From assembly GCA_019359675.1 (NCBI GenBank), contig JAHHGX010000026.1:1-54312 (forward strand): a stretch of DNA of 54,312 nt, read 5' to 3'. The DNA comes from Calothrix sp. FI2-JRJ7. Lineage in GTDB: Bacteria > Cyanobacteriota > Cyanobacteriia > Cyanobacteriales > Nostocaceae. The notes under the pieces are model-generated. The model saw only the letters and a program-made list of their open reading frames with translations, had not been told where the DNA came from and made no database searches. Shown one piece after another: positions 1 through 54,312 of this stretch (positions are counted from its first letter, which is position 1; each line of letters opens with the position of its first letter). Position numbers and translations under genes: made by a program.

Positions 1-2
1 CT

Positions 3-107
3 AAAACAACGAAAATGGTTGATACATTAATCGCGATTGCACTTAATTTGTTCAACCCCAAACATTTAAGAAACTGGTTTGCTAACTGCTGTTACTGTAC
101 CTCATAA
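3..107 (+). pseudogene. 3' end of an unidentified reading frame, possibly a transposase
   Basis: A reading frame is open from the window edge to a TAA at 105-107. Its last residues are rich in Phe, Trp and Cys (NPKHLRNWFANCCYC). It stops where the IS630 fragment begins, in another frame. The style recalls the ends of cyanobacterial insertion-sequence proteins, but I cannot name a family. It may be an intact gene that enters from the left or a fragment left when another element landed. Confidence 0.35.
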
Positions 108-526
108 ACCTGCAATCTGCTGTATATGGAGTAGTAGAGCCGTTAACAGGTGAGAACTTTACGCTTGAATTTTCACACTTAGATGCACTTTGTTTCGGAA
201 TATTTCTAGATAATTTATCTCGATTATACCCAGAAGATATACATGTAATACAAGTTGATAATGGGGCATTTCATTTTAGTAAATATCTGCAAGTACCATC
301 AAATATCATTCTTTTATTTCAACCTCCATATACACCAGAAGTGAATCCAATAGAGAGGTTTTGGAAGGAAATTAAAAAATCATTAAAATGGGAATGCTTC
401 CAAACATTAGATGAATTAAAAGAAGCTGTCTGGAAACAGCTAGATAAATTTACTACTTCTCAAATACAATCTATTGCTGGATGGAATTTTATTTTAGAGG
501 CTTTATTTGTATCAGGCTTTTCGTGA
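107..526 (+). mobile_element. IS630-family transposase, 3' fragment
   Basis: This is the C-terminal catalytic part of an IS630/Tc1-mariner type DDE transposase. One frame is open from about 104 to the TGA at 524-526. Visible signatures are YGVVEPLTGE, the second catalytic Asp in VDNGAFH, then PPYTPEVNPIERFWKEIK with the third acidic residue, and the family-typical ending GWNFILEALFVS. The N-terminal helix-turn-helix and the first catalytic Asp are missing, because the frame runs into the tail of another reading frame at about 105. It is therefore not an active element. At its right end it abuts the remaining half of a SulP permease gene on the same strand, so the element or its remnant replaced the permease's 5' half. 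Confidence 0.8.
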
Positions 527-527
527 A

Positions 528-1286
528 ATGGTATTAGTCGTTGTTTTGGGAGCAGCTCGTTTAACTCAACCAATTCCAATGGCTGTATTAGCGGGTATTG
601 CACTAAAAGTTGGTATTGACATTCTCGACTGGAGTTTTTTGAAGCGTTCGCACAAAGTCTCTCTCAAAGGTTCAATCATCATGTATGGTGTATTGCTCCT
701 GACAGTGTTTGTAGACTTAATTGTGGCAGTTGGTATTGGGGTGTTTATTGCGAACATCTTGACAATTGAGCGTCTTTCCGAAATGCAAGGTGAAGAAGTC
801 AAAACAATTACCGATGCAGATGATGCAATTGTTTTGAACGCAGAAGAGAAGCGCTTGTTCGATTTGGCAAATGGTCGCGTATTACTGTTCTACCTCAGCG
901 GTCCAATGATTTTTGGGGTATCGAAAGCAATTGCACGTGAACACTCCGCAATGGCAGACAGTGACGTTGTAATTATGGATTTAAGCGATGTACCAATGCT
1001 GGGTGTGACTGCTTCGTTGGCACTTGAAAATGCAATCAAAGATGCGGTTGATAAAGGTCGTCAGGTAATGATTGTTGGCGCCGCTGGTAAAGTTAAAAAG
1101 CGTTTAGAAAAGTTTGGAATTTTCCAAATTATTCCGCAACACAATTTATTTAGCGAACGCGCTGATGCTCTTAGACAAGCACTAGTAATTGTGAATCCAA
1201 GTTACGCTAATATCCCTACTAGCAGAGAATATCCACAAGGAGATGAATCCTCCTACGATTACCCTATTCAACCAAAAAACGCTTAA
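528..1286 (+). pseudogene. SulP-family anion permease, C-terminal half (STAS domain)
   Basis: The product matches the last part of SulP sulfate/bicarbonate permeases, which normally have about 550 residues and 12-14 membrane spans. Present are the final transmembrane region (QPIPMAVLAGIALKVG, DILDW, then a hydrophobic span ending FIANILTIERLS) and a complete C-terminal STAS domain (VIMDLSDVPMLGVTASLALE). The first ten or so membrane spans are gone, and the sequence begins directly after the IS630 transposase stop. The ATG at 528 is simply the first Met after the junction. Since the transport path is missing, I call it a 5'-truncated pseudogene, although the STAS part could still be translated. 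The STAS frame itself shows no stops or shifts, so the break may be recent. Confidence 0.8.
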
Positions 1287-1293
1287 CTAGTAC

Positions 1294-1347: not shown

Positions 1348-1385
1348 CCACGATAACCCCAAATCCCAAAACCCAAAATCAAAAG

Positions 1386-2780: not shown

Positions 2781-2808
2781 TATTCTTTACATTTACAATA
2801 CTTGCAAG

Positions 2809-2845: not shown

Positions 2846-2905
2846 TGGGTGGGTTTGCCGGAGTGTCACAAATCTCCAACTGGAGGAAGATGATATTTTT
2901 GGTTA

Positions 2906-4736: not shown

Positions 4737-5861
4737 ATGAGTAACTCCCTTACCGCAGATTTGTTTGCTGTGCTAGACATTTTGGTTTTAGAGCGAATAG
4801 AACCCGGTTCATTTAGAATAATAGGAACTGTTCCCAATTGGATAAGTTTATTTTGTCGTAGTCATCTTGAATCGGGAATGGTATTATTAATACCTGAACA
4901 AGAATTTCCATTTTTAGAAAACTTTTTAATTGATGCCGAAGAATTTTGGCGTGAAGCAAATGCTACTAAGCTCGATTCGGGTGTATGGGCAGAGTACGAC
5001 AGAAGAGGTAGAGAAGAATATTTTGAAGCTTCAGCAATTTGTCTTGGAGATAAAAAAGTTTTGTTGGTAGAATTACAACATGGAGATTATCAAGAAAAAC
5101 TATTAATCATCCAAAAAGCGCGTGAAAATCAATTGATTTACGAACAATTAGTCAAAGAGAATCAAAAAAAAGAAATTTTAATTCATTGTATTATTCATGA
5201 TCTTGCTGGACAATTAAGCGGTATCAATTGTTGTTTAGCTCTGTTAGAATTTGAAAATTTAACAACTAAAGGAAAAGAACGTTTAGAAATAGGTCGTAGG
5301 CAATCAATTAAACAAGAAATGTTAATTAGAGAGGTTTTAGATGCATTTTCCGCTGATGTACAATCGCTTGAGTCTTTTAATGTTGATATCGAAAACGCCC
5401 CTAATATTTTAAGTGTTGCTCAAGAAGTTATACAATTTTTAACTCCTACTTATGCTTTAAACAGAATTAGGCTAGTGTTAAATATTCAGGGAGGTGCCGA
5501 TGTTAATATGACAGTTGATTGGAGAGTGGTGGGTGATAAATCACGTTTAGAAAGGGTAATATCAAATTTAGTAGAAAATGCATTCCGCCATAGTCCAAGA
5601 GAATCAACGGTAGTAATTAACTTAAGGCAAGATGGTGATTTTATTTTCGCCGCTGTAGATGATGAGGGAAGTGGTGTGCGTCCGAATGCAGTAGCAAACT
5701 TATTTCAAAAATTCTCTCAAGGAAGTAAACCAGGAAGAATAGGGTTAGGACTTTACTTCTGTAGAATTACCATTGAACGTTGGAGTGGTGAGATAGCTTA
5801 CTCTCCACGTCCTGAAGGTGGTTCGCGGTTTTGGTTTCGTCTACCCAAACCGAGACGCTAA
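4737..5861 (+). CDS. Soluble sensor histidine kinase, last gene of the GTPase operon
   Basis: A 374-residue histidine kinase without membrane spans. Residues 1-135 form an N-terminal region unlike any sensor domain I can name. A dimerisation/phosphoacceptor helix holds His 154 in IIHDLAGQLSG; this H-D pattern differs from the usual H-E. The HATPase part carries the N-box NLVENAFRHSP, the G1 box DDEGSG and the F/G2 boxes FQKFSQG and GRIGLGLYFC. No receiver domain is attached and no response regulator gene is adjacent, so the partner is elsewhere. It ends the operon that starts at 2906; the gap from the previous gene is 26 bases. A palindromic repeat follows directly. Inference: the GTPase state or the PAS-like protein feeds into this kinase. 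Confidence 0.85.
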   Translation: MSNSLTADLFAVLDILVLERIEPGSFRIIGTVPNWISLFCRSHLESGMVLLIPEQEFPFLENFLIDAEEFWREANATKLDSGVWAEYDRRGREEYFEASAICLGDKKVLLVELQHGDYQEKLLIIQKARENQLIYEQLVKENQKKEILIHCIIHDLAGQLSGINCCLALLEFENLTTKGKERLEIGRRQSIKQEMLIREVLDAFSADVQSLESFNVDIENAPNILSVAQEVIQFLTPTYALNRIRLVLNIQGGADVNMTVDWRVVGDKSRLERVISNLVENAFRHSPRESTVVINLRQDGDFIFAAVDDEGSGVRPNAVANLFQKFSQGSKPGRIGLGLYFCRITIERWSGEIAYSPRPEGGSRFWFRLPKPRR

Positions 5862-33842: not shown

Positions 33843-34038
33843 GGATTAAATTGGCGCCAATCTCACTTTTTATTCTATCTTGCCTTTATGGTAATTATAT
33901 TTGAGATATAAAATATTAAGCACGCTCAGTGCTTAGTACGAACGTAATAAAATTATAAAGTTTTGATGATTTTGGTAGCATGACTTAGTTACCTGGGAAT
34001 ACTGAAATTAAAGCCAAAAAATTTTAAGATACCAGGGA

Positions 34039-36102: not shown

Positions 36103-36150
36103 GCTGTAAAATATTCAATTCACATAATCACTATAAATGAAAATCTTGTG

Positions 36151-36173
36151 GAACGGGCATCCCTGCCCGTCCC
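36151..36173. repeat. ACGGGCA/TGCCCGT hairpin
   Basis: GGAACGGGCA and TGCCCGTCC around TCCC, between two convergent genes. It is a variant of the GGGC...GCCC repeat family and could terminate both. Confidence 0.6.
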
Positions 36174-36210
36174 TTTAAAAATAAATGATTTATTTATATC
36201 TTTCAAATAT

Positions 36211-38805: not shown

Positions 38806-39019
38806 CTATGACCGCAGTGGCTACTTAAGGGATTCAAACAGCACAGTCTTTTACAGAAAATTATCTTACCCATGTGTAATATAATACCACTATTGACTAA
38901 GAATATAAAATTTTCATTAAGACACTATATAAAATATTACTAACAGGTGTGAATTTTTGCGCTAATTACAGGACACACTATTTACTTTCGTTTACTTTTT
39001 AGTAGTGTTTATGTCCAAT

Positions 39020-39979: not shown

Positions 39980-40026
39980 GGTGTAAATAAAGCTAGGATT
40001 ATTACGATTCCTAACTATACCTATAA

Positions 40027-40476
40027 TTAACTTTCCAAATGATACACCAATGCTTGTAAGCCCAGTATATAACTCTGGGCGCCGAAACCGCTAATTTGCC
40101 CAACTGCCACAGGAGCAATGTATGAGTGATGACGAAACTCTTCACGACGATAGACGTTGCTCAGATGAACCTCAACAGTAGGAATATTTACGCCAGCTAT
40201 TGCATCACGCAAGGCTACACTCGTATGAGTATAAGCTCCAGGATTTATTAATATCCCTTGATGCTTTCCCCAAGAGTCATGGATTTTATCGACCAAAAAA
40301 CCTTCGTGATTTGACTGGAAAAAATCGATATTAACCGCTAAATGTCGTGCTTGTTCTTCTAACAAGCGGTTAATGTCGTTTAAACTAAGTACACCATAAA
40401 TACCTGGTTCTCGCTGTCCCAGCAAATTTAGGTTTGGTCCGTGCAGTACCAAAATGCTTAAAGTGCGCTGTGCCAC
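40027..40476 (-). CDS. aroQ: Type II 3-dehydroquinate dehydratase
   Basis: This enzyme removes water from 3-dehydroquinate, third step of the shikimate pathway. The 149-residue product has all signatures: [21 protein letters not shown] with the catalytic Tyr, [13 protein letters not shown] with its catalytic Arg position shifted as in the family, [19 protein letters not shown], and [20 protein letters not shown] with the catalytic His in the preceding block. The start is GTG 40476; a 45-codon gene ends 15 bases upstream on the same strand. It likely forms an operon with that small gene and with the ADP-ribosylglycohydrolase-like gene downstream. Confidence 0.95.
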
Positions 40477-40491
40477 GTGTAAATTTTATTT

Positions 40492-40629
40492 TTAACGACG
40501 ACGTGAGCGGTCGTTTACTGGAATCGGAATTAGCTCCGGTTCCGCTTCAGCATCAGGGCCTAAAAGGGCTTCGATTAATTTCCGCCCTAATTCTTTAAGC
40601 TTTTCCAGTACCTTCTCTATATAGTCCAT
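40492..40629 (-). CDS. 45-residue charged protein upstream of aroQ
   Basis: An open frame from ATG 40629 to TAA 40492 encodes an amphipathic Lys/Glu/Leu helix (DYIEKVLEKLKELGRKLIEA) followed by an acidic Pro-rich part (PDAEAEPELIPIPV) and an Arg tail (DRSRRR). It has no membrane segment. Length and composition suggest a real small protein; I cannot name it. It ends 15 bases before the aroQ start, so the two are probably co-transcribed. Confidence 0.55.
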   Translation of the reverse strand: MDYIEKVLEKLKELGRKLIEALLGPDAEAEPELIPIPVNDRSRRR

Positions 40630-40915
40630 CTAACTGACCGCTCCTGAGATAATACCTTAATTTAAGTTAACAGCAAAAGAATAGTAAGGGCAACACAGTT
40701 TTTATTGGATACGTTGTACATGATTATACACCTACACACGCAACAGCGGAATGAGCCGCGTCTCTCTAAATTTTATTGTGTTACTTTCCCTACTTATAAG
40801 AGTATCACATTAACCCCCCAGTCAGCCGCATCTTTCTTGTGATGGGTATTTTGCATTTTTCGTCAATAGGGAATAGACAGTTAGGAAGGGAAAATCACGT
40901 TCTCCCTTCCAATCT

Positions 40916-43582: not shown

Positions 43583-44291
43583 GGAGATTTTTTATAAAAA
43601 AAGCAATGAGCGCAGTTAAATAGTCATTCTTGAGGCTAATCTATCAGAGATGTCAAGCTATATGTCACTACCTGCGTGGTAACATGTATTCTCACCAACT
43701 GCTTACAAGCAACACATGGGAGTGACTCTTCTTGCGTGCTGGGTTTACATCCCTCATGGTATTTTGAGTTAGTGCTGCTAGACCTTTGACACATACGTGT
43801 TGGTTCCAGCTATTTCAATCATTAACTTATATCTTGCTTTTTTGGCGACTGTTAGCAAGTAAAAATCTGCCGTCAGGTCTAATCAGCACCTCAAAGCTTG
43901 ATTAACATCGAAACCATAGTATAGTCCTCAATTCTTTTATATCGATAATAAATATAGTCATACATCAAAAAACGAGTAACGAAATTTTTAAACTACGGCA
44001 AAACCATAGGACTCGCCCCGGCGCCCACTATAAGCTGACAGCGCGCTGCATGTTGATTCTATAATCATCATTGCCTAACCATAAAGTAAATAAATAGCAA
44101 TCATAAGTCAAATATTATACTTTTATAAAAATCACTCGCTAGAGAGGTGTGAACTGGCATTACAGCCAAAAAAGTTATGCTAGGATAAACTTAGGAGAAC
44201 CAAATTCGGCAGATATGTTCTTGTTTTTACATCCAATTGCAAGTAATTCTGCGAATGTACATCTTGACTTATTTCAATTCTGGAGAGTTTC
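43583..44291. promoter_or_regulatory. Non-coding region between topA and rbp; rbp leader
   Basis: No gene found in 709 bases. It holds the divergent promoters of topA and rbp. A possible rbp promoter is TTACAG (near 44159) with TAGGAT downstream, followed by a long AT-rich leader of about 110 bases; long leaders are typical of cold-regulated cyanobacterial rbp genes. The ribosome site is GGAGAG (44282-44287). The stretch 43660-43860 is less AT-rich and could encode a small RNA, but I cannot support one. Confidence 0.4.
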
Positions 44292-44606
44292 ATGTCAATT
44301 TACGTAGGTAACCTATCCTACAACGTTACTCAAGACGACTTGGAAAAAGTATTTTCTGAGTACGGCGGCGTTAAGCGAGTACAATTACCCACTGACCGAG
44401 AGACAGGTCGTTTACGAGGTTTTGGATTTGTTGAAATGGAAAACGACGCGGCGGAAACCGCAGCCATAAACGCACTGGATGGTGCAGAGTGGATGGGGCG
44501 CGTAATGAAAGTCAATAAAGCAAGGCCTAGAGAAGAGAAAGGTGGTCGCTCTGGTGGCAATAACTGGAGCAAGAGTGAAAACAGCAGTTATTCACGTCCC
44601 TACTAA
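44292..44606 (+). CDS. rbp: RRM-type RNA-binding protein
   Basis: A 104-residue protein with one RNA recognition motif: RNP2 is IYVGNL (3-8) and RNP1 is RGFGFVEM (about 43-50). The short tail is rich in Gly, Asn, Ser and Tyr (GGRSGGNNWSKSENSSYSRP). Cyanobacterial Rbp proteins of this type are often cold-induced and have recently been linked to localising photosystem mRNAs near thylakoids; the role here is inferred. It is a single gene with a long leader, typical of the family, followed by a palindromic repeat 175 bases downstream. Confidence 0.92.
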   Translation: MSIYVGNLSYNVTQDDLEKVFSEYGGVKRVQLPTDRETGRLRGFGFVEMENDAAETAAINALDGAEWMGRVMKVNKARPREEKGGRSGGNNWSKSENSSYSRPY

Positions 44607-44780
44607 AATAAGACCATTATTTGAGACAGCAAAGCCATAATGTTCAAAGCTTTTGAGCTTTAAGAAACAATTTGCTATCGGAATTTAATTATAAGCGTAG
44701 CATATAGGAGACACTATTTGCTTTGATTTATTTATCAAAGTGATAGTTTGTAACCTATATGCTTAATTTTATGCAACCAA

Positions 44781-44846
44781 AGAAACCGGGTTTCTATGCG
44801 AAATTGTCGTTTTCATTACAGATATTGAAAAAGAAACCCGGTTTCT
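44781..44846. repeat. GAAACC/GGTTTC palindromic repeat, copy 4
   Basis: AGAAACCGGGTTTCT (44781-44795) and AGAAACCCGGTTTCT (44832-44846) enclose GCGAAATTGTCGTTTTCATT and ACA, the shared spacer. It lies 80 bases upstream of ndhB. The remainder of 44607-44927 shows no gene. Confidence 0.85.
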
Positions 44847-44927
44847 AATTTATAGTTAGAATTCCCAAAAAACAATAGAATTAACACAGTTGGTTCCTTG
44901 ATTCATAGCTGAAACCTAATAATTGTC

Positions 44928-46490
44928 ATGGATTTTGCTAATCTTGCAGCCCAGCTAAATGCTGGAACGATACTACCAGAAGGGATTGTAATTATAACCC
45001 TGATGGCAGTTTTGATAATTGATTTGGCTTTGGGGCGTGCCTCAGAGCGCTGGATTGGCTATGTCGCGATTGGTGGCTTGCTAGCCTCAATATTTGCTCT
45101 TTACTTGCAGTGGGATAGCGCTAATCCTATGGGCTTTAGCGGTGGTTTCAATTCAGACGATTTAAGTATTGTTTTTCGCGGTATTGTTGCTCTCTCAAGC
45201 ACCGTTACCGTTTTAATGTCAATTCGTTATATCGAACTAAGTGGAACCGCATTAGCAGAATTCATTGGTATTTTGCTGACTGCGACTTTAGGGGGTATGA
45301 TTCTTTCTGGAGCGAATGAACTAGTAACTATTTTCATCGCGCTTGAATCGCTTAGTATTTCCTCCTATTTGTTGACAGGCTATACCAAACGCGACCCTCG
45401 TTCAAACGAAGCAGCCCTCAAGTATCTACTTATTGGTGCCTCAAGTACAGCAGTTTTTCTATATGGAGTGTCATTACTCTACGGATTATCGGGCGGAAAA
45501 ACACAATTAACCGCAATTGCTGATGGAATTACCAATGCGAACTTGACGCAATCGCTTGGTTTAGTTATTGCATTAGTATTTGTAATCGCTGGTGTTGGCT
45601 TTAAAATTTCAGCGGCGCCTTTCCACCAATGGACACCTGACGTATACGAAGGGGCGCCAACTCCAGTAATTGCCTTCTTATCAGTTGGTTCTAAAGCAGC
45701 AGGTTTTGCACTTGCACTTCGCTTATTGACAACTGTCTTTCCGCTTGTGGCAGAAGAATGGAAATTTGTCTTCACCGCACTAGCAGTACTCAGTATGATT
45801 TTGGGTAACGTAGTTGCCCTAGCTCAAACCAGTATGAAGCGGATGTTAGCATACTCATCAATTGCCCAAGCAGGGTTTGTAATGATTGGTTTAATTGCGG
45901 GAACTGAGGCAGGTTACGCCAGCATGGTATTTTACATGCTCGTTTACCTGTTTATGAACCTATGTGGTTTTACGTGTGTAATCCTATTCTCATTACGGAC
46001 AGGTACCGACCAAATCGCTGAATACTCAGGTTTATACCAAAAAGACCCACTATTAACTCTTGGTCTAAGCATCTCACTGCTATCTTTAGGTGGAATACCT
46101 CCTCTTGCAGGCTTCTTTGGTAAAATCTACCTATTTTGGGCAGGTTGGCAAGCAGGACTTTACTGGCTAGTGTTGTTAGGATTAGTCACTACCGTTATCT
46201 CCATTTATTACTACATTCGCGTCGTCAAGATGATGGTTGTTAAAGAACCTCAAGAAATGTCCGACGCCATTAAGAACTACCCAGAAATTAATTGGAAGTT
46301 ACCTGGGTTTAGACCTTTACAAGTTGGTTTGATTACCACATTAATTGCAACTTCGCTACTTGGTGTTCTATCTAACCCCATTTTTACCCTAGCGAATAAC
46401 TCTGTGACTCACACCCCAATGTTGCAAGCTGTAACAGCACATAAAGCTCAAGTCACTATAGCTAAAATCCACGAGCAACAGGAGTTATAG
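44928..46490 (+). CDS. ndhB: NAD(P)H-quinone oxidoreductase subunit 2
   Basis: NdhB is a proton-pumping antiporter-like subunit of the thylakoid NDH-1 complex, needed for cyclic electron flow, respiration and CO2 uptake. The 520-residue protein has about 14 spans. Family blocks include [20 protein letters not shown] (with the conserved Glu), [40 protein letters not shown] and [20 protein letters not shown]. Start ATG 44928 gives the usual cyanobacterial N-terminus ([13 protein letters not shown]). It is transcribed alone, as usual in cyanobacteria, and followed by a strong terminator. Confidence 0.97.
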
Positions 46491-46543
46491 TTCTAATTGC
46501 TTCACAAGATACAGCTTATAACCAATTCAATACATTTTTTTAC

Positions 46544-46569
46544 AGGCGCCTATAGTAGGCGCCTTTTCT
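46544..46569 (+). terminator. ndhB terminator made of two GGCGCC palindromes
   Basis: AGGCGCC (46544-46550), loop TATAGTA, GGCGCCT (46558-46564) and a TTTTCT tract. It is 53 bases after the ndhB stop. Both stem arms contain the genome's dominant palindrome. Confidence 0.85.
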
Positions 46570-46700
46570 ATTAGACAGCTAAATAGCAAAATTACTTATG
46601 ATAACTTAATCTTCATAACTTTGTCTATATATGCTTAGAATGATATTAACAGTTAAATATATGCTTATTAACTTGATGATATATTTATCACAACTAGTAT

Positions 46701-47063
46701 CTATTTACTGAATTTCCTCAATAAAGTATTATCAATACCTTCATGTATATCAACAGGTTTCATCTTAGCTTCATCTAAGCGAGAAAAATTACGCAAGCTC
46801 AGAACAATATCACGGATACGCACACTACCAGTTTTCATTGAATCCAATATTTTCAGCAAGTCTTGAGTTAAAAAATCGAAGTCAATTTCTTCTTTTTTTT
46901 CTTCAATCCGCAATGTTGGAGAATATTCTTGTTGGTATAAAACAATTAAATCGAGCAAATCTTGGACATAATTACTTGTATGAGTAATATTGCCATGAAT
47001 AAAATTTATAGAATTATTAATTTCGTGAGCAATTCCCGCTATCATTTGCCCTAAACTAGACAT
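46701..47063 (-). pseudogene. Histidine kinase remnant (dimerisation region only)
   Basis: About 120 residues from the middle of a cyanobacterial histidine kinase: MSSLGQMIAGIAHEINNSIN holds the phosphoacceptor His, then FIHGNITHTSNYVQDLLDLI, DFDFLTQDLLKILDSM, and VLSLRNFSRLDEAKMKPVDI plus HEGIDNTLL. In intact relatives a full ATPase domain follows and a PAS/GAF sensor part precedes. Here both are gone: the frame ends in a stop after LLRKFSK, and upstream sequence runs into a palindromic repeat at 47117. Translation through that repeat would add KPGFSH, a by-product. I judge it a fragment rather than a small dimerisation protein. Confidence 0.75.
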
Positions 47064-47116
47064 TTTTTCACTTTGAATACTTTGTATAATAAAAATGTAG
47101 CTATTTATAAAATGTG

Positions 47117-47150
47117 AGAAACCGGGTTTCAATAAAGAAACCCGGTTTCT
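47117..47150. repeat. GAAACC/GGTTTC palindrome, minimal form, copy 5
   Basis: AGAAACCGGGTTTC and AGAAACCCGGTTTCT are separated by only five bases; the spacer of the other copies is missing. It marks the left limit of the kinase remnant. Confidence 0.8.
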
Positions 47151-47245
47151 TAGTCAAACTTTTACTACGAACACAAACATTTAAAATAAAAAGCCTGATT
47201 GTTACAGGCTTATATGTTTTACGGCTAGCATAGCAGTACAACAAA

Positions 47246-47827
47246 TCATTTAATTTTTTGTTTAATAAATGTCACTACTTGAGCTAACTGTTTTTTCAAG
47301 CTGTCTATTTCCACTTGCATTTTGGCAATTTTGTCATTTAACGCCTGAATTTCAACTCCGTTTGTAGATGTTACAACACCGTTTGTAGGAGTTGCTCCGT
47401 TTTTACCAGCAGCTTGTGCATTCACTTGGGTTTGGTCTTGGCGAGGTTGTTTTGACTTCGCCATTGCTGCTTTAATAGCATTAATTAATTGTTTTTGGTC
47501 AAAGGGTTTGTTGAGAAATTCAAAGTACTCAAAAGGTTCTGAGATTTTCTCCGTAACTTCTTCCTTTCGCCCTGACATGATTACCAAGGGGATTTTTCTC
47601 AAATCGGGTTGGGCTTGAATTTGTTGGAATACGTCCCATCCGCTCATTTTGGGCAAGAGAAAGTCCAGCATTATTAAGCTAAACTTTTCCTGTTGGATAA
47701 GTTTTAGCCCCTCAATACCGTCTTTTGCTTCAAACACTTGAAAGTTGCCTGAAGGAGGTAACATTTCTCGTACTTTTACCCTAACAACTGTAGTGTCATC
47801 GATAACTAGGATTTTGTTACTTGCCAC
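47246..47827 (-). CDS. CheY-like response regulator with C-terminal coiled coil
   Basis: A 193-residue regulator. Residues 4-120 are a receiver domain (KILVIDDTTVVRVKVREML, phospho-Asp in SLIMLDFLLPKMSGWD, Ser/Thr position in PLVIMSGR, Lys in FLNKPFDQKQL). A linker rich in Gln, Asn and Thr follows, then a C-terminal coiled coil of 35 residues (VEIQALNDKIAKMQVEIDSL). There is no DNA-binding domain, so it should act through protein contacts. I prefer GTG 47827; the frame also allows ATG 47893, which would add 22 residues unlike the family. The kinase remnant downstream is on the same strand and might once have been its partner. Confidence 0.82.
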   Translation of the reverse strand: MASNKILVIDDTTVVRVKVREMLPPSGNFQVFEAKDGIEGLKLIQQEKFSLIMLDFLLPKMSGWDVFQQIQAQPDLRKIPLVIMSGRKEEVTEKISEPFEYFEFLNKPFDQKQLINAIKAAMAKSKQPRQDQTQVNAQAAGKNGATPTNGVVTSTNGVEIQALNDKIAKMQVEIDSLKKQLAQVVTFIKQKIK

Positions 47828-48015
47828 GACTGATTTCTCTAACAGATACTTTAGTTTTAGATGGCTAATGCCGATTAGTAGACAATGAATCATCCCACTA
47901 TATCCAATATTTATGTGAATTGGGGGATAGTAGATTCTGGGAAATATAACAATGATGTAAATTTATTGTGTACGTATCCACGTAGTAATGGTTTTTACTG
48001 ATATCAAGGTGATAT

Positions 48016-48885
48016 ATGTCTTCAAATACAGAATTTAAATCAGAAATTTTGGCACTCCCTCAATGGCTGAGGCGCCCAATTGGCAAGGCTAGCGAACTTT
48101 CAACAGTCCAGCAAATTATTAAGCAGCGGCAAATACATACGATTTGCGAGGAGGGTCGATGTCCAAATCGGGGAGAGTGCTATGCTCAAAAAACTGCTAC
48201 CTTTTTATTGATGGGTCCAACCTGTACAAGGTCTTGCGCGTTTTGTCAGGTTGACAAAGGACATGCGCCAATGCCTTTAGATATTGATGAGCCAACCAAG
48301 GTAGCTGAGGCAGTAAAGCTTTTAGGTTTACGCTATGTAGTTTTGACCTCGGTTGCACGCGATGATTTGCCCGACCAAGGCGCCGGACATTTTGTGACTA
48401 CAATGGCGAAGGTGAGAGAATTAAATCCTGAAACTCTAATTGAAGTTTTAACTCCGGATTTTTACGGTGACAAATCTCGTATCGAAGCCATTGCTCAATC
48501 TAAACCCGCCTGCTTTAACCATAATATCGAAACAGTACGACACTTAACTCCCAGAGTCAGACGTGGCGCCAAATACGACCGTTCACTTGCAGTACTGCAA
48601 ATCGTCAAAGATGTTGACCCAACAATTCCAACTAAATCGGGTTTGATGTTAGGACATGGTGAGACACGCGCAGAAATCATCGAAACAATGGCTGATTTAC
48701 GTTCGTATAAATGTGACCGCATTACACTAGGTCAGTACATGCGTCCTTCACTAGAACATTTACCAGTACAAAAATATTGGACACCAGAGGAATTTGACGA
48801 ACTTGGCGATGTCGCGCGCGAAATGGGTTTCCGTCATGTCCGTTCGGGTCCTTTAGTTCGCAGTTCGTATCACGCAGAGGAATAA
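48016..48885 (+). CDS. lipA: Lipoyl synthase
   Basis: A radical SAM enzyme that inserts two sulfurs into octanoyl groups on lipoyl domains. The 289-residue protein has both cluster motifs: Cys 44, 49 and 55 in [12 protein letters not shown] (auxiliary cluster, the sulfur source) and Cys 70, 74 and 77 in CTRSCAFC (radical SAM cluster). The C-terminal RSSYHA supplies the Ser ligand of the auxiliary cluster. Many cyanobacteria have two lipA copies; this one is the common form of about 290 residues. The start ATG follows GGTGATAT. The gene is followed after 97 bases by psaX on the same strand. Confidence 0.96.
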
Positions 48886-48982
48886 ATAAAGGGTGCTAAC
48901 AAAAATATTTTTTACGAATGTAGGCAATGGGGACAGCTCTTTGGTATTTCTAAAGAAGTTATTAAAATAGGAGTTCACATAT

Positions 48983-49117
48983 ATGGCACCTACAGTTGGA
49001 AAAGACGTTGCGAATACCGGAGCTAAACCTCCCTATACCTATCGCACAGCTTGGGCACTTCTTCTTCTTGCTGGCAATTTTATAGTAGCTGCGTTCTATT
49101 TCCACATTCTTGAGTAA
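48983..49117 (+). CDS. psaX: Photosystem I subunit PsaX
   Basis: A 44-residue protein with one membrane span. The pattern KPPYTYRTAWALLLLAGNFI-VAAFYFHILE is that of PsaX from Thermosynechococcus (KPTYAFRTFWAVLLLAINFL...), a peripheral photosystem I subunit that binds one chlorophyll near PsaF and PsaB. The N-terminus is slightly longer (APTVGKDVANTGA). ATG 48983 has TAGGAG ten bases upstream. PsaX is not found in all cyanobacteria, and the gene is easy to miss because of its size. A terminator-like hairpin follows. Confidence 0.88.
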   Translation: MAPTVGKDVANTGAKPPYTYRTAWALLLLAGNFIVAAFYFHILE

Positions 49118-49122
49118 TCGAT

Positions 49123-49164
49123 AAGGGTAGAGGTGAAGGGGGAAACCCTTTTGCCTTTACCCTT
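49123..49164. terminator. Hairpin after psaX
   Basis: AAGGGTAGAGGTGAAGGG pairs with CCCTTTTGCCTTTACCCTT around GGAAA, followed by CTTT. It can serve the psaX transcript and the convergent frame ending at 49167. Confidence 0.6.
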
Positions 49165-49166
49165 CT

Positions 49167-49388
49167 TTACAAAAAGAAATACACACGTAATTGAATTTGC
49201 TCGTGTCGAGTCCATTTGCGACCATAGTAGTTTTTCGGAAAGCAGCATTCAAACCGTAAAATTTCATACGTAAGACGACCGCCAAATGTAATCAGGGCAA
49301 TGGTACTGTCTACAGTAATCGTATTTACAGTCAGTTGGGTAAGTTGGTTAATTTAATTTGTAATAAACTGGGCAAATTGTGCATTCAT
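49167..49388 (-). pseudogene. 74-codon frame with one internal stop, unknown family
   Basis: From ATG 49388 (minus) the frame reads MNAQFAQFITN, TAA, then 61 open codons (INQLTQLTVNTITVDSTIAL, ITFGGRLTYEILRFECCFPK, NYYGRKWTRHEQIQLRVYFF L) to a natural TAA. Composition and the Gly-Gly-Arg, Cys-Cys and Tyr-Tyr pattern look protein-like rather than random, and a single CAA or AAA to TAA change would explain the stop. No ATG, GTG or TTG follows soon after the stop. I do not recognise it. It may be a small protein gene lost recently, or chance. Confidence 0.35.
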
Positions 49389-49578
49389 GAGTTAATCTTG
49401 TCTAGTTGTTATTACGGTTTTGCGATGAGTGATTTTTGATAATGGGTATCAAGTTTAAAGTTATATTTGACACTTTGGGTTTTAACTTATCAATATGTAG
49501 ATAAATGTACGCTAATATACATGGGGACTTACAAGCACTTTTGTGCGTAGCCAAATTTGTTCAGTGGTCGATTTGACA

Positions 49579-51342
49579 ATGCAGCAGTATTCGAGCTTAC
49601 CAGAACAAAACTCACAAGTTGATTCAATCTCAACTCTTTTGACCACGATTGAGCATTTACGTGACCAATTATGGCTGGAAAGCAGCTTAAATCAGCTGCA
49701 ATCTCATTTAAACGAATGCTTAATGTCCATTTGCAGTGACAATATACAATGTTTAGAGTCTAAAATATTTCAAACTGTGGTCAATCAGCTTGGACTTGCG
49801 ATTAAGTCGAGTCAAGTTGGTATTGCATTAGTTCAACCTGGATCCGCTTGTGCAAAACTTTGCTATGTCTCAACTGGTGCGGCGCCTGAAAGTGAAAATC
49901 CACAAGTTAAACTACAACTAGAACAAATAATTAGTACCGATGAATTAAATTTTTGGAAAACACAGCAACCTCAGTGTGCCTTCCCAATTACAGCTAGCGA
50001 AGCCAACACATTAGTAGGATGGCTGATAATTGTCTACCCAACCCAAATTGAGGAAACTGCCTTTTTCAACACATGTAAGCAGCAGTTGCTAAAATCATCT
50101 GTTAAGCGATGTATTGCAGCGTTAATACAAGTGCGGCAGTTACAATCATTAGAACAAGTTTATCAAGATTTAAAGAGCTATAATCAAGAGCTTCAGCGTA
50201 CCAATCAACTCAAAAATCAGTTTCTTGCTAGCACCAGTCACGAAATTAGAACTCCATTAAGTTCAATTCTTGGCTTTACTCATTTATTAATCGCTCAAGG
50301 ATTTGATGCCAATCGTGAACGTCATCAAGAATACTTAAATATAATTCAGTCTAGCGGCAAGCATTTGCTAGCTTTGATTAACGATATATTAGACCTTTCC
50401 AAAATCGAAGCAAATCAAATGGAGGTGCAGTGGGAAACTGTAGATATACCCGCAATTAGTCGAACTGTTTTTGCGCTGGTAAAAGAGAAAGCTGCAACAA
50501 AGGGTTTGAAGATGGTTTTGGATTTAGACCCTGATGTGACGAACATTATCGCTGACTCGCTACGACTCAAGCAAATGCTGTTAAATTTGCTTTTTAACGG
50601 TTTAAAATTTACTGAGTCCGGTTCAGTTGGTTTGCAAGTCAAAAAAATCAATGACTTTGTGCATTTTATAGTTTGGGATACAGGTACAGGTATACCATCC
50701 GAGCATCAAGGGGAATTATTTCAACCTTATTCGCAAATCGCTAATGTACTGGTAAGTCGTGATGAAGGAACAGGTTTAGGACTAGCGGTAACTCGCAAGT
50801 TAGCAGAACTTCACAGTGGTTACGTCGAAGTTGAATCTGAGATGAATAAAGGTTCGCGTTTTACAATTGTATTACCGTTGAATCAATCTACAAATGTTGA
50901 AACAGAAAACAATACAAATCAAATTGCAGGAATCGAGCATATTACTTATTGCCCACTTCCTGAAGTAATTTTATCTTCTAATCCTCCCTTCATTTTAATA
51001 TTGGAGGACGACTTACCCAACGCACAAATGATGCAAACCTACTTAGGAAAATTAGGTTACAAGGTAGGGTGGGTAAAAAATGCTACTCAATTCTGGGATT
51101 TTTTACAGCAACAGTGCCCATCAATAATTCTGCTAGATATATACTTACCTGACTGCAATGGATTTAAATTAATCAAGCAATTACGTGAAAACGAGAAGTA
51201 CAAAGATATAATAATAATAGCTCAAACAGCGATGGCAATGAAAGGCGACCGTGAAACCTGTATTGCAGCTGGTTTTGACGATTATATTTGTAAGCCAATT
51301 GATTTACCACTGCTTGCAGCACTTGTATCTAAATATAGTTAA
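49579..51342 (+). CDS. Hybrid histidine kinase with C-terminal receiver domain
   Basis: A 587-residue soluble hybrid kinase. Residues 10-190 are a GAF-like sensor region (AIKSSQVGIALVQPGSACAK; FPITASEANTLVGWLIIVYP). A short coiled coil leads to the HisKA domain with His 221 in TSHEIRTPLSSILGFTHLL. The ATPase domain has LLNLLFNGLKFTESG, WDTGTGIP and GLGLAVTRKLAELHSG. The C-terminal receiver domain has phospho-Asp 520 in SIILLDIYLPDCNG and Lys in DDYICKPIDLP. It starts at ATG 49579 (MQQYSSLPEQ); a GTG at 49543 in frame is less likely. The stop codon coincides with the first bases of the tandem repeat array at 51341. Confidence 0.88.
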   Translation: MQQYSSLPEQNSQVDSISTLLTTIEHLRDQLWLESSLNQLQSHLNECLMSICSDNIQCLESKIFQTVVNQLGLAIKSSQVGIALVQPGSACAKLCYVSTGAAPESENPQVKLQLEQIISTDELNFWKTQQPQCAFPITASEANTLVGWLIIVYPTQIEETAFFNTCKQQLLKSSVKRCIAALIQVRQLQSLEQVYQDLKSYNQELQRTNQLKNQFLASTSHEIRTPLSSILGFTHLLIAQGFDANRERHQEYLNIIQSSGKHLLALINDILDLSKIEANQMEVQWETVDIPAISRTVFALVKEKAATKGLKMVLDLDPDVTNIIADSLRLKQMLLNLLFNGLKFTESGSVGLQVKKINDFVHFIVWDTGTGIPSEHQGELFQPYSQIANVLVSRDEGTGLGLAVTRKLAELHSGYVEVESEMNKGSRFTIVLPLNQSTNVETENNTNQIAGIEHITYCPLPEVILSSNPPFILILEDDLPNAQMMQTYLGKLGYKVGWVKNATQFWDFLQQQCPSIILLDIYLPDCNGFKLIKQLRENEKYKDIIIIAQTAMAMKGDRETCIAAGFDDYICKPIDLPLLAALVSKYS

Positions 51343-51519
51343 ATAGTAGAAACCTGGTTTCTCGCACAAAATCGTTATTTTTATTACAAGTTAAATAGTA
51401 GAAACCCGGTTTCTCGCACAAAATCGTTATTTTTATTACAAGTTAAATAGTAGAAACCTGGTTTCTCGCACAAAATCGTTATTTTTATTACAAGTTATCA
51501 AATAAGAAACCGGGTTTCT
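51341..51519. repeat. Tandem array of three 52-bp units carrying the GAAACC palindrome
   Basis: Units at 51341-51392, 51393-51444 and 51445-51496 each read AAATAGTAGAAACC, C/T, GGTTTCTCGCACAAAATCG, TTATTTTTATTACAAGTT. They differ only at the central C/T. A final arm AGAAACCGGGTTTCT (51505-51519) closes the array. The unit contains the same palindrome and spacer as the dispersed copies. The first unit begins inside the stop codon of the hybrid kinase. Confidence 0.95.
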
Positions 51520-51563
51520 GGAAGATGTTTAAAATAAGAACTGACAGTATATAATATAAAGTT

Positions 51564-52385
51564 ATGTTAAATGAAAAACTTGATAAACTCAAAGCTTTAT
51601 TCGCTCAAATGGAGCAAGCGTTAATAGCTTATTCTGGTGGTGTTGATAGTACCTTAGTAGCAAAAATTGCATATGATGTCTTAGGTACACGTGCTTTAGC
51701 TGTGACTGCGGTTTCACCTTCTTTGCTTCGAGAAGAGCTAGAAGACGCAAAAGTTCAAGCTGCGACAATTGGAATTCGCCATCAAGTAATCGAAACACAC
51801 GAAATGGAAAATCCGAATTATACGGCAAATCCAGTTAACCGTTGTTATTTTTGTAAAAGCGAACTTCACGACACCCTTAGACCATTAGCAAACCAGCTTG
51901 GCTATCCTTATGTTGTAGATGGAGTAAATGCTGATGATTTACACGATTATCGTCCAGGTATTCAAGCTGCCAAAGAAAGAGGCGCCTTTTCTCCTTTAGC
52001 TGAAGTAGGCGCCAGTAAACTAGAAGTACGGCAGCTTTCACAGCAACTCGGTTTACCGTGGTGGGATAAACCAGCACAACCTTGCTTAAGTTCAAGATTT
52101 CCTTATGGAGAAGAGATTACAGTAGCTAAATTGCAGCGAGTAGGTAGGGCAGAAATATATTTGCGTAAACAAGGGTTTTCAAACCTGCGCGTTCGCTCTG
52201 AAGGTGATACCGCACGAATTGAGCTACCTGCCGAACACATTAAAGATTTTGTGTCAAAAACCGATTTACAACTAGTCGTTTCTGCTTTCCAAGAACTCGG
52301 TTTTATCTACGTTACCCTAGATTTAGAAGGTTATCGTAGCGGTAAGTTAAACCAAGTCCTTAATAAACAACTAGTAAACCTGTAG
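51564..52385 (+). CDS. larE: Pyridinium-3,5-bisthiocarboxylate nucleotide synthase LarE (sulfur transferase)
   Basis: LarE adenylates and then thiolates the pyridinium carboxylate precursor of the nickel-pincer nucleotide cofactor of lactate racemase-type enzymes. The 273-residue protein has the PP-loop SGGVDST (24-30) for ATP. Three cysteines, Cys 94 and 97 in NRCYFCKSEL and Cys 174 in QPCLSSRFPYG, match the [4Fe-4S]-type LarE, which recycles sulfur through a cluster, in contrast to the single sacrificial Cys of Lactobacillus LarE. No larA, larB or larC lies in this window, so the cofactor's use is not shown. It is convergent with the DUF4864-like gene (24-base gap). Confidence 0.9.
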   Translation: MLNEKLDKLKALFAQMEQALIAYSGGVDSTLVAKIAYDVLGTRALAVTAVSPSLLREELEDAKVQAATIGIRHQVIETHEMENPNYTANPVNRCYFCKSELHDTLRPLANQLGYPYVVDGVNADDLHDYRPGIQAAKERGAFSPLAEVGASKLEVRQLSQQLGLPWWDKPAQPCLSSRFPYGEEITVAKLQRVGRAEIYLRKQGFSNLRVRSEGDTARIELPAEHIKDFVSKTDLQLVVSAFQELGFIYVTLDLEGYRSGKLNQVLNKQLVNL

Positions 52386-52409
52386 CTTCGGTTTCATCCA
52401 ACTTAACAT

Positions 52410-52772
52410 TTACAAAATTTCTGCTTCAACAGGCACTAGGAAGCAGCCATTAATTCTCCAAACGCCTTCTGGCTGCTTGGACATTAAATATAAAGCCCTA
52501 ACTGGAACCCCATCAGGACTCAGAAGCAATACAAGCTGTGTAATATTTCCTTGAATTGTAGTAATATTCTCAAACAGTACGGAACGGGGACGATAAACAG
52601 GTAAATAGCCTGTTTTCACCATTTTGAGAAAATTCTCTGCCGTTTGAAATTGCGTCCTAATTTCAGGACTTGCGAAAGCAAACGCTTCTTCGGCGTTGTC
52701 TTGTTGAAACGCTTGCAATTGCTGTTCAATGACAAAACGAATAGCTGTGCTATCGCTATCAGTTACTTTCAT
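52410..52772 (-). CDS. DUF4864-like protein
   Basis: A 120-residue soluble protein of the NTF2-like kind. The helix IRFVIEQQLQAFQQDNAEEA followed by FAFASPEIRTQF and FLKMVKTGYLPVYRPRSVLF, and a C-terminal beta sheet ending GVWRINGCFLVPV, match DUF4864. No function is known for this family. No signal peptide is visible. It is convergent with larE; the CapA-like gene lies downstream on the same strand, 104 bases beyond the facing gap. Confidence 0.75.
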   Translation of the reverse strand: MKVTDSDSTAIRFVIEQQLQAFQQDNAEEAFAFASPEIRTQFQTAENFLKMVKTGYLPVYRPRSVLFENITTIQGNITQLVLLLSPDGVPVRALYLMSKQPEGVWRINGCFLVPVEAEIL

Positions 52773-52876
52773 TCTAAAAATGAGTTAGCGTGCAAAAAAA
52801 GACTCAGGCAGAAAATTTTACTTATAGAAAATATTAGCATTTATACAGATGACCAAGCTAACGGCAAACACTATTT

Positions 52877-54022
52877 TTAGTTAGTAGCTATAATTTCGCC
52901 TTTTTGGTTAATTTTCATTGAAGTTTTAGGAAAATCTTTTTTTATCAAATTGCGTACTAGTCTGACCGTGCGTTTATTCTTGTCAATATGAGGAATTCCT
53001 TGTTTATCCATATGAACTGGAATAATTTTACCTTCAACCAAATCTCCTGCTTGATTTAACTTTGCTTCCAGAATCATTGAGTAACCAGTTTCGGCAGTTG
53101 TGGATAAAGTTCGATATCCCAAAAAGTTACCTAATGAATAAGCTATTAATTTACCTTTGTAAATTTCCATCGCCCGTGGTACATGTGGACCATGTCCCAA
53201 AACCATGTCAGCGCCTGCATCAACCATTGTTCGAGCAAACTTAACTGAATTACCACGATTTTCACCATAAAAATACTCATTACTGTTTCGAGTACGCAAC
53301 GCATTAGTACCTTCGGCGCCTGCGTGCATTGACACTATCACAACATCAGCTTGCTTTTGTGCTGATTTAACGAGTTGTGCAGCAGTTGGTATATCGTGAA
53401 TCGAGTTGTAATAATCATATGGTGCAAATCCAACCATTGCTACCTTGACGTTATTACTATTAAGCAAAAGAATTTGATTTTTCTGACCTAGAGTATTAAT
53501 ACCTACCTTTTTTAAATTTTTAACCGTGTCACGAAAACCCACCACTCCAAAATCTAAAGCATGGTTATTCGCGACATTGAATACATTAAATCCAACATCA
53601 GCAAATAGTTTGGCATATTCTGGTGGCGACCGAAAAGCAAATGTTTGCCCTTTGGTTATATCTTTGGCGCTATAACGATAGTTTGTTAAAGAACTTTCAA
53701 AGTTGCCAAATAATATATCAGCATTAGCTAAGTATTTACGTACTGATTGAGGAATTAATTTATTACGATTGCTAGGTAATCTATTGTTAGGGTAATTAGT
53801 ACCAGGAATAACATCCCCAACAGCTTGAATTGTAATCGAATCAGGAAAAATTTGCTCCTCAGTTACTGGAGGCAATATGGGTAGAGAGTCTGAAGGTTTC
53901 GGCAGTTTATCAGATGCCTGTATTTTACCCATCCGAATCACACTACCAAGGGTAATACCTACACATAAACATGTACTAACAAACGTAACTGAAAGTAATT
54001 TTCCTAACCACCGATTGAGCAT
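52877..54022 (-). CDS. CapA-family (PGA_cap) metallophosphatase-fold protein
   Basis: A 381-residue protein with an N-terminal signal anchor (LLSVTFVSTCLCVGITLGSV), so it acts outside the inner membrane. The CapA domain shows AVGDVIPGTNYPNN, LFGNFESSLT, FNVANNHALDFG, VIVSMHAGAEGT and MVLGHGPHVPRAMEIYKGKL, which correspond to the metal-binding Asp, Asn and His residues of the calcineurin-like fold. In Bacillus, CapA helps make poly-gamma-glutamate capsules, but most cyanobacterial members have no known substrate and no capBC genes are adjacent. The Cys at residue 18 is within the hydrophobic stretch and not a proper lipobox. ATG 54022 is preceded by GGAGGTGCG. Confidence 0.85.
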   Translation of the reverse strand: MLNRWLGKLLSVTFVSTCLCVGITLGSVIRMGKIQASDKLPKPSDSLPILPPVTEEQIFPDSITIQAVGDVIPGTNYPNNRLPSNRNKLIPQSVRKYLANADILFGNFESSLTNYRYSAKDITKGQTFAFRSPPEYAKLFADVGFNVFNVANNHALDFGVVGFRDTVKNLKKVGINTLGQKNQILLLNSNNVKVAMVGFAPYDYYNSIHDIPTAAQLVKSAQKQADVVIVSMHAGAEGTNALRTRNSNEYFYGENRGNSVKFARTMVDAGADMVLGHGPHVPRAMEIYKGKLIAYSLGNFLGYRTLSTTAETGYSMILEAKLNQAGDLVEGKIIPVHMDKQGIPHIDKNKRTVRLVRNLIKKDFPKTSMKINQKGEIIATN

Positions 54023-54312
54023 AATCGCACCTCCTCACCCAATGAAGTACAGTTTAGCTCACTAATTCAATATGTCTAGGTATATTTTATTTCAATCTTA
54101 TTATTAGCGCATTATTGGCGCCTTCTAGCTGGAGCAATGAAGAGACAGCTTTGTTTAAGTCATTTTACTTTTAATAAAGAAAATAGGCGTTGCTGAATCA
54201 TTGTATGAATTATGCAACCACCTCAAGCCATGCGGGCGCCTTGCGCCCGCTGCGCCACTGAGCCGTACTTAAGATAATGTATTACTAGCCGAATTGAAAA
54301 CCTAAGCATTTC
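54023..54312. other. Right-edge non-coding region with an insertion-sequence-like end
   Basis: No gene is seen. ATAGGCGTTGCTGAATCA (near 54185-54202), followed by TGTATGAATTATG, resembles sequence often found at the ends of cyanobacterial insertion sequences; a similar ATGGCATTGCTGAAT occurs at 7572. Near 54232 GGGCGCCTTGCGCCC forms a small hairpin. Confidence 0.4.

What the first reader, a model, noticed from the sequence alone, without database searches (positions are those of the whole stretch)
1..54312. GGCGCC has replaced GCGATCGC as the highly iterated palindrome
Hand count gives about 80 GGCGCC in 54.3 kb, some 25 times the chance expectation of about three, spread evenly over coding and non-coding DNA. 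I saw no GCGATCGC. Work on cyanobacterial HIP sequences reports rare genomes with alternate palindromes linked to a matching methyltransferase. This genome appears to be such a case and could test whether a methyltransferase or repair process makes the sites.
Basis: partly seen in the sequence, partly recalled or inferred. Interest (0 to 1): 0.8.

Follow-up and report, generated by a model that had tools for sequence, protein, structure and literature searches.

The report
GGCGCC replaces HIP1 in Calothrix relatives
In this cyanobacterium the short word GGCGCC is repeated about every 580 bases in place of the usual cyanobacterial repeat word; this was known from one close relative, and here it turns out to be shared and preserved across a small group of species.

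Summary
Observation confirmed. The window has 81 GGCGCC (2.8 expected from base composition, 4.4 from dinucleotides) and no GCGATCGC. The whole genome has 14,889 GGCGCC and 31 GCGATCGC in 8.66 Mb. It is an alternate HIP; Elhai 2015 already reported GGCGCC as one in Calothrix PCC 7103. New here: (1) It is a clade trait, in 7 genomes (7,475-20,380 sites each); the two nearest HIP1-bearing genomes found have 5 and 4. (2) Sites are kept far above background at fourfold-degenerate positions (117/133 versus 775/1497 against NIES-4105). (3) Losses (38) exceed gains (3) on recent branches; 27 of 38 losses give GGTGCC/GGCACC, as expected if the central C is methylated. (4) One HindV-like (GRCGYC) m5C methyltransferase orthologue is shared by all 7, but HIP1 relatives carry homologues too, and a second copy was not found in 2 of 7. 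So the methyltransferase alone does not explain the switch; loss of HIP1 plus maintenance of a methylated GC word does better. Methylation and the repair or selection step remain untested.

The parts
1..54312 (.). Array of 81 dispersed GGCGCC sites (palindromic, both strands); first site 1077-1082, last site 54235-54240
   Evidence: Exact count, all start positions
1077..1082 (.). First GGCGCC site of the window, an example of the unit
34000..53999 (+). Stretch used to place the window in sister genomes; main matches 94-97% identical in HK-06, PCC 7103, PCC 7102 and PCC 7716, 82-89% in NIES-4105
5493..5498. One of 16 GGTGCC/GGCACC words in the window (the C3-to-T neighbour of GGCGCC; whether this copy was once GGCGCC was not traced); others listed
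   Evidence: decay spectrum

Best explanation
GGCGCC is an alternate highly iterated palindrome. In the common ancestor of a Calothrix/Dulcicalothrix group HIP1 and its inner words GATC and CGATCG were purged (probably by restriction; inferred), while an m5C methyltransferase of HindV type (GRCGYC), of a kind also found in HIP1-bearing relatives, stayed. GGCGCC, the one GRCGYC form whose methylated C is preceded by G on both strands, then rose to about 1.1-1.8 per kb by point substitutions at new places, not by conversion of old HIP1 sites. It is still held in place: positions other than the central CpG change half as often as other G/C, and synonymous positions inside sites are strongly kept. 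It now erodes mainly by C-to-T change at the central CpG, as expected if that C is 5-methylcytosine. Shown: counts, clade distribution, conservation, decay spectrum, shared methyltransferase orthologue. Inferred: target and methylated base of the enzyme, cause of HIP1 loss, and whether selection or methyl-directed repair keeps the sites (I lean to a selected function of a G-methyl-C mark, with the word itself set by the resident enzyme).
For: Counts. Clade: 7 genomes with 7,475-20,380 sites; CSU_2_0 and C. elsteri 5 and 4; local HIP1 0-1 per about 17-21 kb in the clade loci L079-L084, 22 and 26 in those two; the 7 are split from the two outgroups at 100% (6,693 columns). Conservation: GGCGCC 70/84 against NIES-4105, other all-GC hexamers 0.497; with PCC 7716 as reference 192/248 versus 2294/4647; fourfold sites 117/133 versus 775/1497, and 75/104 versus 389/1090 against the C42 MAG (Fisher p 2e-17 and 1e-12). 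New sites: 0/17 and 0/11 aligned sites are GGCGCC in the two outgroups; of 12 and 11 aligned outgroup HIP1 sites none is GGCGCC in the window genome. Decay: 27 of 38 losses are GGCACC/GGTGCC; CpG transition 29/382 versus 98/4183 at other CpGs, p 3e-7; other positions 17/2379 versus 1311/90187, p 0.0016. Enzyme: L002 orthologue in 7 of 7, one clade at 100/100; a plasmid homologue is annotated HindV methylase (HindV = GRCGYC is recalled). The other GRCGYC forms are depleted in the six clade members counted (GACGTC 0.04-0.30, GGCGTC 0.08-0.38), and all forms are 0 in the two outgroup samples.
Against: Methylation was not measured. Other xGCGCx words also show raised CpG transition (13/213, not different from GGCGCC, p 0.62), so the decay signature may belong to GCGC context. 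Homologues of the enzyme (fragments included) were found in 114 of 388 genomes of the order; by hand tally, 109 of them have at least 50 HIP1 per Mb and at most about 70 GGCGCC per Mb. Of 18 genomes under 50 HIP1 per Mb (hand tally), 5 have a homologue; only the two of this genus show plain GGCGCC. G136 has rCCGGy, G059 a related CRGCGCYG-like word, G340 no excess (9 GGCGCC in 3.8 Mb). The depletion of GGCGCC in enzyme-bearing family members is modest (median 0.85 versus 4.77 per Mb, p 0.014, 28 versus 38 genomes, 3 excluded). In pooled loci GGCGTC stands at 0.53 of expectation in bearers and 0.60 in non-bearers (3 of 5.0 in 37 kb), which does not help the GRCGYC assignment. The HIP1-side enzymes (GATC, CGATCG) were not identified in this genome. 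Sites shared by descent are not independent.
Confidence: 0.55

Rival explanations
1. Methyl-directed repair ratchet (Elhai 2015): a hypothetical nuclease reads G-methyl-C and lets mismatch repair keep any new mutation that makes such a site, so GGCGCC accumulates without any function until about one site per kb.
For: Explains why GGCGCC alone of the GRCGYC forms is enriched, in the six clade members counted, and the density near 1-2 per kb. Biased repair could also give the low rate of change at non-CpG positions. Gaps of 400-800 bases are in surplus (517 versus 454 +/- 18.5) and gaps of 1600-3200 in deficit (122 versus 148 +/- 9.2), a mild evenness that saturation would predict.
Against: Recent branches show 38 losses and 3 gains (sign test p 1e-8), so no pumping is visible now; 0 of 12 ancestral GGTGCC cells became GGCGCC (low power). 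The overall spread of gaps over 1.23 Mb of clade sequence equals that of shuffled positions (CV 1.001 versus 1.004; single stretches 0.78-1.11). The second enzyme copy it invoked was not found in PCC 7102 and the C42 MAG. No Vsr-family gene in this genome.
Confidence: 0.3
2. Passive relic: GGCGCC rose once by an unknown bias and is now simply decaying with no upkeep.
For: Losses outnumber gains in all five lineages examined (4:2, 5:0, 15:0, 9:1, 5:0) and are mostly CpG transitions.
Against: Non-CpG positions change at half the background rate, and fourfold positions inside sites are much better kept than those outside in NIES-4105 and C42; a relic should decay at or above background.
Confidence: 0.12
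3. Composition or codon usage: GGCGCC is common because of Gly-Ala codons or GC content.
For: 53 of 94 coding sites lie in phase 0 (Gly-Ala).
Against: Order-1 and order-2 expectations are 39 and 34 against 785; sites occur in all phases and in non-coding DNA; the 69 other family genomes have 0-530 each.
Confidence: 0.02
4. The determinant is another methyltransferase, for example the 370-aa enzyme L004 or the 337-aa enzyme beside groESL.
For: L004 is in 7 of 7 GGCGCC genomes and was not seen in the two outgroups (not every outgroup place was fetched). The 337-aa enzyme is in the two ingroup genomes with slow loss and no full copy was found in the three with fast loss (9/180 versus 29/202 losses, p 0.003; background change differs too, 144/1791 versus 187/1780, p 0.011).
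Against: L004 occurs in 125 of 388 genomes of the order (fragments included), most of them HIP1-rich, so it looks like the DmtD (rCCGGy) type (inferred). The 337-aa enzyme is missing in G000, HK-06 and PCC 7103, which all have GGCGCC, and in PCC 7102 sits beside a BsuBI/PstI-type endonuclease.
Confidence: 0.08

Closest known systems
Alternate HIP GGCGCC of Calothrix PCC 7103 (Elhai 2015, PMC4390886)
   Same: Same word, similar density, HIP1 lost, GATC strongly depleted, GRCGYC-type m5C methyltransferase present, the other GRCGYC forms depleted. PCC 7103 lies in the same clade as this genome (about 95-96% identical over aligned DNA).
   Different: The 2015 study had one genome and one 19-kb fragment and judged exceptional HIPs sporadic and possibly functionless; here 7 genomes share the word, sites are conserved, and in 2 of 7 only one enzyme copy was found.
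HIP1 (GCGATCGC) of most cyanobacteria
   Same: Dispersed palindrome in coding and non-coding DNA at a comparable density, tied to m5C methylation of an inner word (from Elhai 2015).
   Different: Different word; HIP1 is 31 per 8.66 Mb here.
rCCGGy of Oscillatoria PCC 10802 and GCsGC of Cyanothece PCC 7822 (Elhai 2015)
   Same: HIP1 low, with another GC-rich word in its place.
   Different: Different words and enzymes; a further rCCGGy case (G136) was met here.
HindV-type (GRCGYC) m5C methyltransferases
   Same: 54.6% identity of L002 to plasmid homologues, one annotated as HindV methylase; PF00145.
   Different: No obvious endonuclease among the ORFs next to L001 and L002, which were listed but not searched against families: they look like orphan genes.

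Membership tests
Alternate HIP (Elhai 2015) | Short GC-rich palindrome over-represented far beyond all other words | tested here: met
   20.1-fold, top 6-mer
Alternate HIP (Elhai 2015) | HIP1 low or nearly absent | tested here: met
   31 in 8.66 Mb
Alternate HIP (Elhai 2015) | Density about 1000-2000 per Mb | tested here: met
   14,889 / 8.66 Mb = 1,719 per Mb
Alternate HIP (Elhai 2015) | Methyltransferase predicted to recognise the word is encoded | tested here: met
   Two homologues, L001 and L002, 61% identical to each other; target by homology and site depletion only
Alternate HIP (Elhai 2015) | Two copies of the enzyme (proposed as perhaps critical for PCC 7103) | tested here: not met
   This genome has two, but in PCC 7102 and C42 one was found (C42 is a 6.5-Mb MAG and may be incomplete). 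A proposed cause, not a defining feature
Alternate HIP (Elhai 2015) | Sporadic, not in clades | tested here: not met
   7 genomes split from CSU_2_0 and C. elsteri at 100% (6,693 columns); six of them (C42 left out, short match) split at 100% from 11 other family members on one 2.5-kb stretch. A generalisation of 2015, not a defining feature
Alternate HIP (Elhai 2015) | The word is methylated in the cell | not testable with these tools
   Indirect: C-to-T excess at the central CpG
HIP1 | GCGATCGC at high frequency | tested here: not met
Vsr (very short patch repair) as the source of the sites | A Vsr-family gene (PF03852) | tested here: not met
   0 hits in this genome; the same search rings in 5 of 14 control genomes
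GRCGYC (HindV-type) m5C methyltransferase, gene L002 | PF00145 domain and nearest annotated homologues | tested here: met
GRCGYC (HindV-type) m5C methyltransferase, gene L002 | Methylates GRCGYC | not testable with these tools
   needs expression and mapping

The most novel reading that the evidence does not exclude
A whole-genome change of recognition word with its function kept: the job done by HIP1 (reading a G-methyl-C mark spread through the chromosome) moved in one ancestor from GCGATCGC to GGCGCC, built from new point substitutions at other places, and has since been preserved by selection through the radiation of a genus-level group. The reader protein would then recognise the methyl mark rather than the word, and GGCGCC is not the functionless by-product proposed in 2015.
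Probability: 0.25. Interest if true: 0.8.

Novelty: new member of a known kind. Interest (0 to 1): 0.5.

Why it matters
HIP1 is hard to explain because nearly all relatives share it. A group with a different word, seven genomes from about 82% to 97% identity and HIP1-bearing neighbours outside it, lets gains, losses and upkeep be counted directly. The counts here argue against codon bias, against a passive relic, against strong pumping by a ratchet today, and against a need for a second methyltransferase. They make clear predictions (m5C at C3; upkeep that depends on methylation) that culture-collection strains could test.

Tried and rejected
Rejected as causes: L004 methyltransferase (fits the pattern in 9 genomes, but is in 125 of 388 genomes of the order); Vsr repair. 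The 436-aa enzyme seen only in the two outgroups, first taken for the lost CGATCG enzyme, has a 263-aa partner gene beside it and may be an ordinary restriction-modification pair, so the fate of the CGATCG enzyme stays open.

Rejected as independent GGCGCC cases: G136 (872 GGCGCC against 9 CCGCGG, but its real word is rCCGGy and GGCGCC is 11 against 16 expected in 72 kb); G170 (8 observed, 8.0 expected in 20 kb); G159 (its word is GGGCGCT); G059 (CRGCGCYG-like, GC 54%). The reversed-word control CCGCGG misled here because it is avoided in many of these genomes. G008 could not be read.

Changed on checking: the spacing data are mixed rather than plainly random, so the repair ratchet was raised from 0.25 to 0.30; a tree with outgroups was added.

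Of the PF00145 places, those not fetched were mainly the 403-436-aa type seen as L005 and short or broken pieces, plus a 297-aa frame in CSU_2_0 and 215- and 271-aa frames in C. elsteri.
Full report
What was checked. The window has 81 GGCGCC and no GCGATCGC (positions). Base composition predicts 2.8, a first-order Markov model 4.4. The maximal-order model predicts 41, because the five-letter pieces of the word are themselves inflated by it. In 445,711 bases of the same genome (window plus 20 stretches, GC 38.9%) there are 785, with 39.0 and 33.9 expected from order-1 and order-2 models; it is the most over-represented 6-mer by the order-1 ratio. The genome, 8.66 Mb in 91 contigs with the window as contig 26, has 14,889 and 31 GCGATCGC.

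What is known. Elhai 2015 (PMC4390886; I read the outline, the passages holding GGCGCC, sections 2.5, 2.6, 3.3, 3.5 and the first part of 3.4) reports GGCGCC as the alternate HIP of Calothrix PCC 7103 and of 19 kb of Calothrix D253, with HIP1 lost, GATC at 16% of expectation, and two GRCGYC-type methyltransferases. It says such exceptional HIPs are sporadic, suggests that gaining a second enzyme copy may have been critical, and proposes a G-methyl-C-dependent mismatch-repair ratchet that needs no function. Searches of the held library for other work on this word listed no other paper that is about it, by title. A 2018 study of HIP1 selection by Xu and others is recalled only and was not seen.

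Distribution. In 388 genomes of the order this genome and its one sampled genus mate G379 (15,449 sites, 88 HIP1) stand apart. The other 69 genomes of the family have 0-530 GGCGCC and 1,117-7,721 HIP1. A scan of named genomes with the methyltransferase L002 (80 loci kept) and whole-genome counts in 16 of the genomes found give: Dulcicalothrix desertica PCC 7102 19,393; Calothrix PCC 7103 17,704; PCC 7716 20,380; NIES-4105 18,131; MAG C42_A2020_038 7,475; HK-06 15,449 (the same genome as G379: same count, and an identical 16,827-base contig). The ten others have 1-277, with Calothrix CSU_2_0 at 5 and C. elsteri at 4. So at least seven genomes, including this one, share the state. On 6,693 columns aligned in nine genomes the seven are split from CSU_2_0 and C. 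elsteri at 100%, with C42 branching first; on one 2.5-kb stretch six of them (C42 had too short a match) are split at 100% from CSU_2_0 and ten other family members, eight of which are counted as HIP1-rich (G392 and G395 were not counted). Within the group the order is weakly held.

Conservation. In aligned DNA, GGCGCC of this genome is kept in 58/68 (HK-06), 58/81 (PCC 7103), 85/94 (PCC 7102), 77/89 (PCC 7716), 70/84 (NIES-4105) and 37/62 (C42) cases, against 0.741, 0.619, 0.771, 0.730, 0.497 and 0.338 for other all-GC hexamers; in CSU_2_0 and C. elsteri it is 0/17 and 0/11. With PCC 7716 as reference, six of six comparisons show higher retention than CG-containing GC-rich hexamers, for example 192/248 versus 2294/4647 with NIES-4105, though the margin is small for PCC 7103 (0.757 versus 0.700) and HK-06 (0.713 versus 0.650). 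At fourfold-degenerate third positions the kept share inside GGCGCC is 117/133 versus 775/1497 outside (NIES-4105) and 75/104 versus 389/1090 (C42). In the HIP1 outgroups it is the reverse, 3/27 versus 113/351 and 1/19 versus 86/267, as expected if the sites were made on the stem of the clade. Of 12 and 11 aligned HIP1 sites of the outgroups none is GGCGCC here; all differ at 2-4 letters. The word was replaced, the places were not.

Decay. With NIES-4105 as outgroup, 38 of 382 lineage-site cells show a loss, 27 of them to GGTGCC/GGCACC, and there are 3 gains (sign test 1e-8). The central CpG changes by transition in 29/382 versus 98/4183 at other CpGs (p 3e-7); other xGCGCx words are also raised (13/213), and GGCGCC does not differ from them (p 0.62). 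The other four positions change in 17/2379 versus 1311/90187 for non-CpG G/C outside (p 0.0016). GGTGCC stands at 1.10-1.73 of expectation in the six clade genomes counted, highest in PCC 7103, and at 0.30 and 0.89 in the two outgroups. Losses are uneven: 4/96 and 5/84 in PCC 7716 and PCC 7102; 15/101, 9/64 and 5/37 in PCC 7103, this genome and HK-06. Spacing: the overall spread of gaps equals that of shuffled positions (CV 1.001 versus 1.004), but gaps under 50 bases are too few (71 versus 121 +/- 10), those of 100-200 and 400-800 too many (279 versus 223 +/- 13; 517 versus 454 +/- 18.5) and those of 1600-3200 too few (122 versus 148 +/- 9.2). That is mild evenness; aligned genomes share sites, so these counts are not independent.

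Methyltransferases. This genome has five full-length m5C enzymes and fragments. L001 (305 aa) and L002 (317 aa), 61% identical, belong to a family of which L002 matches an E. coli plasmid gene annotated HindV methylase. L002 orthologues occur in all seven GGCGCC genomes and form one clade (100/100); extra paralogues are patchy. In HK-06 the best orthologue pieces (97% and 92%) lie on two contigs near their ends, and other copies stand on a third contig. In PCC 7102 and C42 a single copy was found. Both HIP1 outgroups have one homologue, with no GGCGCC, GGCGTC or GACGTC in the 108 and 76 kb sampled. Across 388 genomes 114 have a homologue at E 1e-30 or better, fragments included. In the family, 28 bearers have a median of 0.85 GGCGCC per Mb and 38 non-bearers 4.77 (p 0.014; three with fragments or remote matches excluded). 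Pooled loci of bearers and non-bearers do not differ for GGCGTC (0.53 and 0.60; the latter from 37 kb). So the same enzyme type goes with scarcity of GGCGCC where HIP1 lives and with enrichment in this clade, where HIP1 is gone.

Reading. The enzyme type was probably there before; what sets the clade apart is loss of HIP1 (GATC 144 against 1,048 expected, CGATCG 3 against 38). After that GGCGCC, the GRCGYC form with G before the methylated C on both strands, filled in. What keeps it is either selection on a methyl mark or repair that reads it. The excess of losses over gains speaks against a ratchet that is pumping today; the spacing is mixed. The link to the enzyme is circumstantial, and of five HIP1-poor genomes with a homologue only the two of this genus show the plain word.

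Noticed in passing
G159 (L069, L071): same genus label (g45) as HIP1-rich genomes; 59 HIP1 in 3.4 Mb: A non-palindromic iterated word GGGCGCT(G), about 2 per kb (62 GGCGCT in about 31 kb readable against 4.6 expected; G precedes in 92%) in a 33% GC genome that has lost HIP1. Not a GGCGCC case, and no L002-type match listed for it.
   Followed up: partly
G059 (L060-L064): 54% GC genome with 74 HIP1 in 3.8 Mb and a CRGCGCYG-like iterated octamer (CGGCGCCG 22-fold, CAGCGCCG 24-fold); it carries a 54% homologue of L002.
   Followed up: partly
G136 (L065-L068): A further genome with rCCGGy as alternate HIP (ACCGGC 9.6-fold, HIP1 81 in 6.6 Mb), in the same family label (f21) as other low-HIP1 genomes.
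   Followed up: no
L309-L312 (PCC 7102, C42, PCC 7716, NIES-4105), beside groES-groEL-like ORFs: A 318-340 aa m5C methyltransferase with no full copy found in the three genomes that lose GGCGCC fastest; in PCC 7102 it neighbours a BsuBI/PstI-type endonuclease. Unexplained correlation, 5 lineages.
   Followed up: partly
whole genome sample (window + L010-L029): Extreme avoidance of many other palindromes against order-1 expectation: TGCGCA 0 of 102, GTGCAC 0 of 76, CCATGG 0 of 60, TTCGAA 2 of 143, GGCC 80 of 833, CCGCGG 0 of 30.
   Followed up: no
L014 (G000 contig 61): An m5C methyltransferase next to an Eco29kI-family endonuclease (PF09517), fitting the absence of CCGCGG (Eco29kI = CCGCGG is recalled), with 404-aa and 1073-aa ORFs upstream on the other strand.
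   Followed up: partly
plasmid records: L002-like methyltransferase genes (54.6% identical) sit on small 6.7-kb plasmids of E. coli and Salmonella; 24 of 27 matching records are called mobilizable.
   Followed up: no
L007 (G000 contig 89): A methyltransferase gene cut to 139 aa here, 279 aa in PCC 7103 and 330 aa in PCC 7716, but 411 aa in HK-06, PCC 7102 and NIES-4105: apparently several separate breakages.
   Followed up: no
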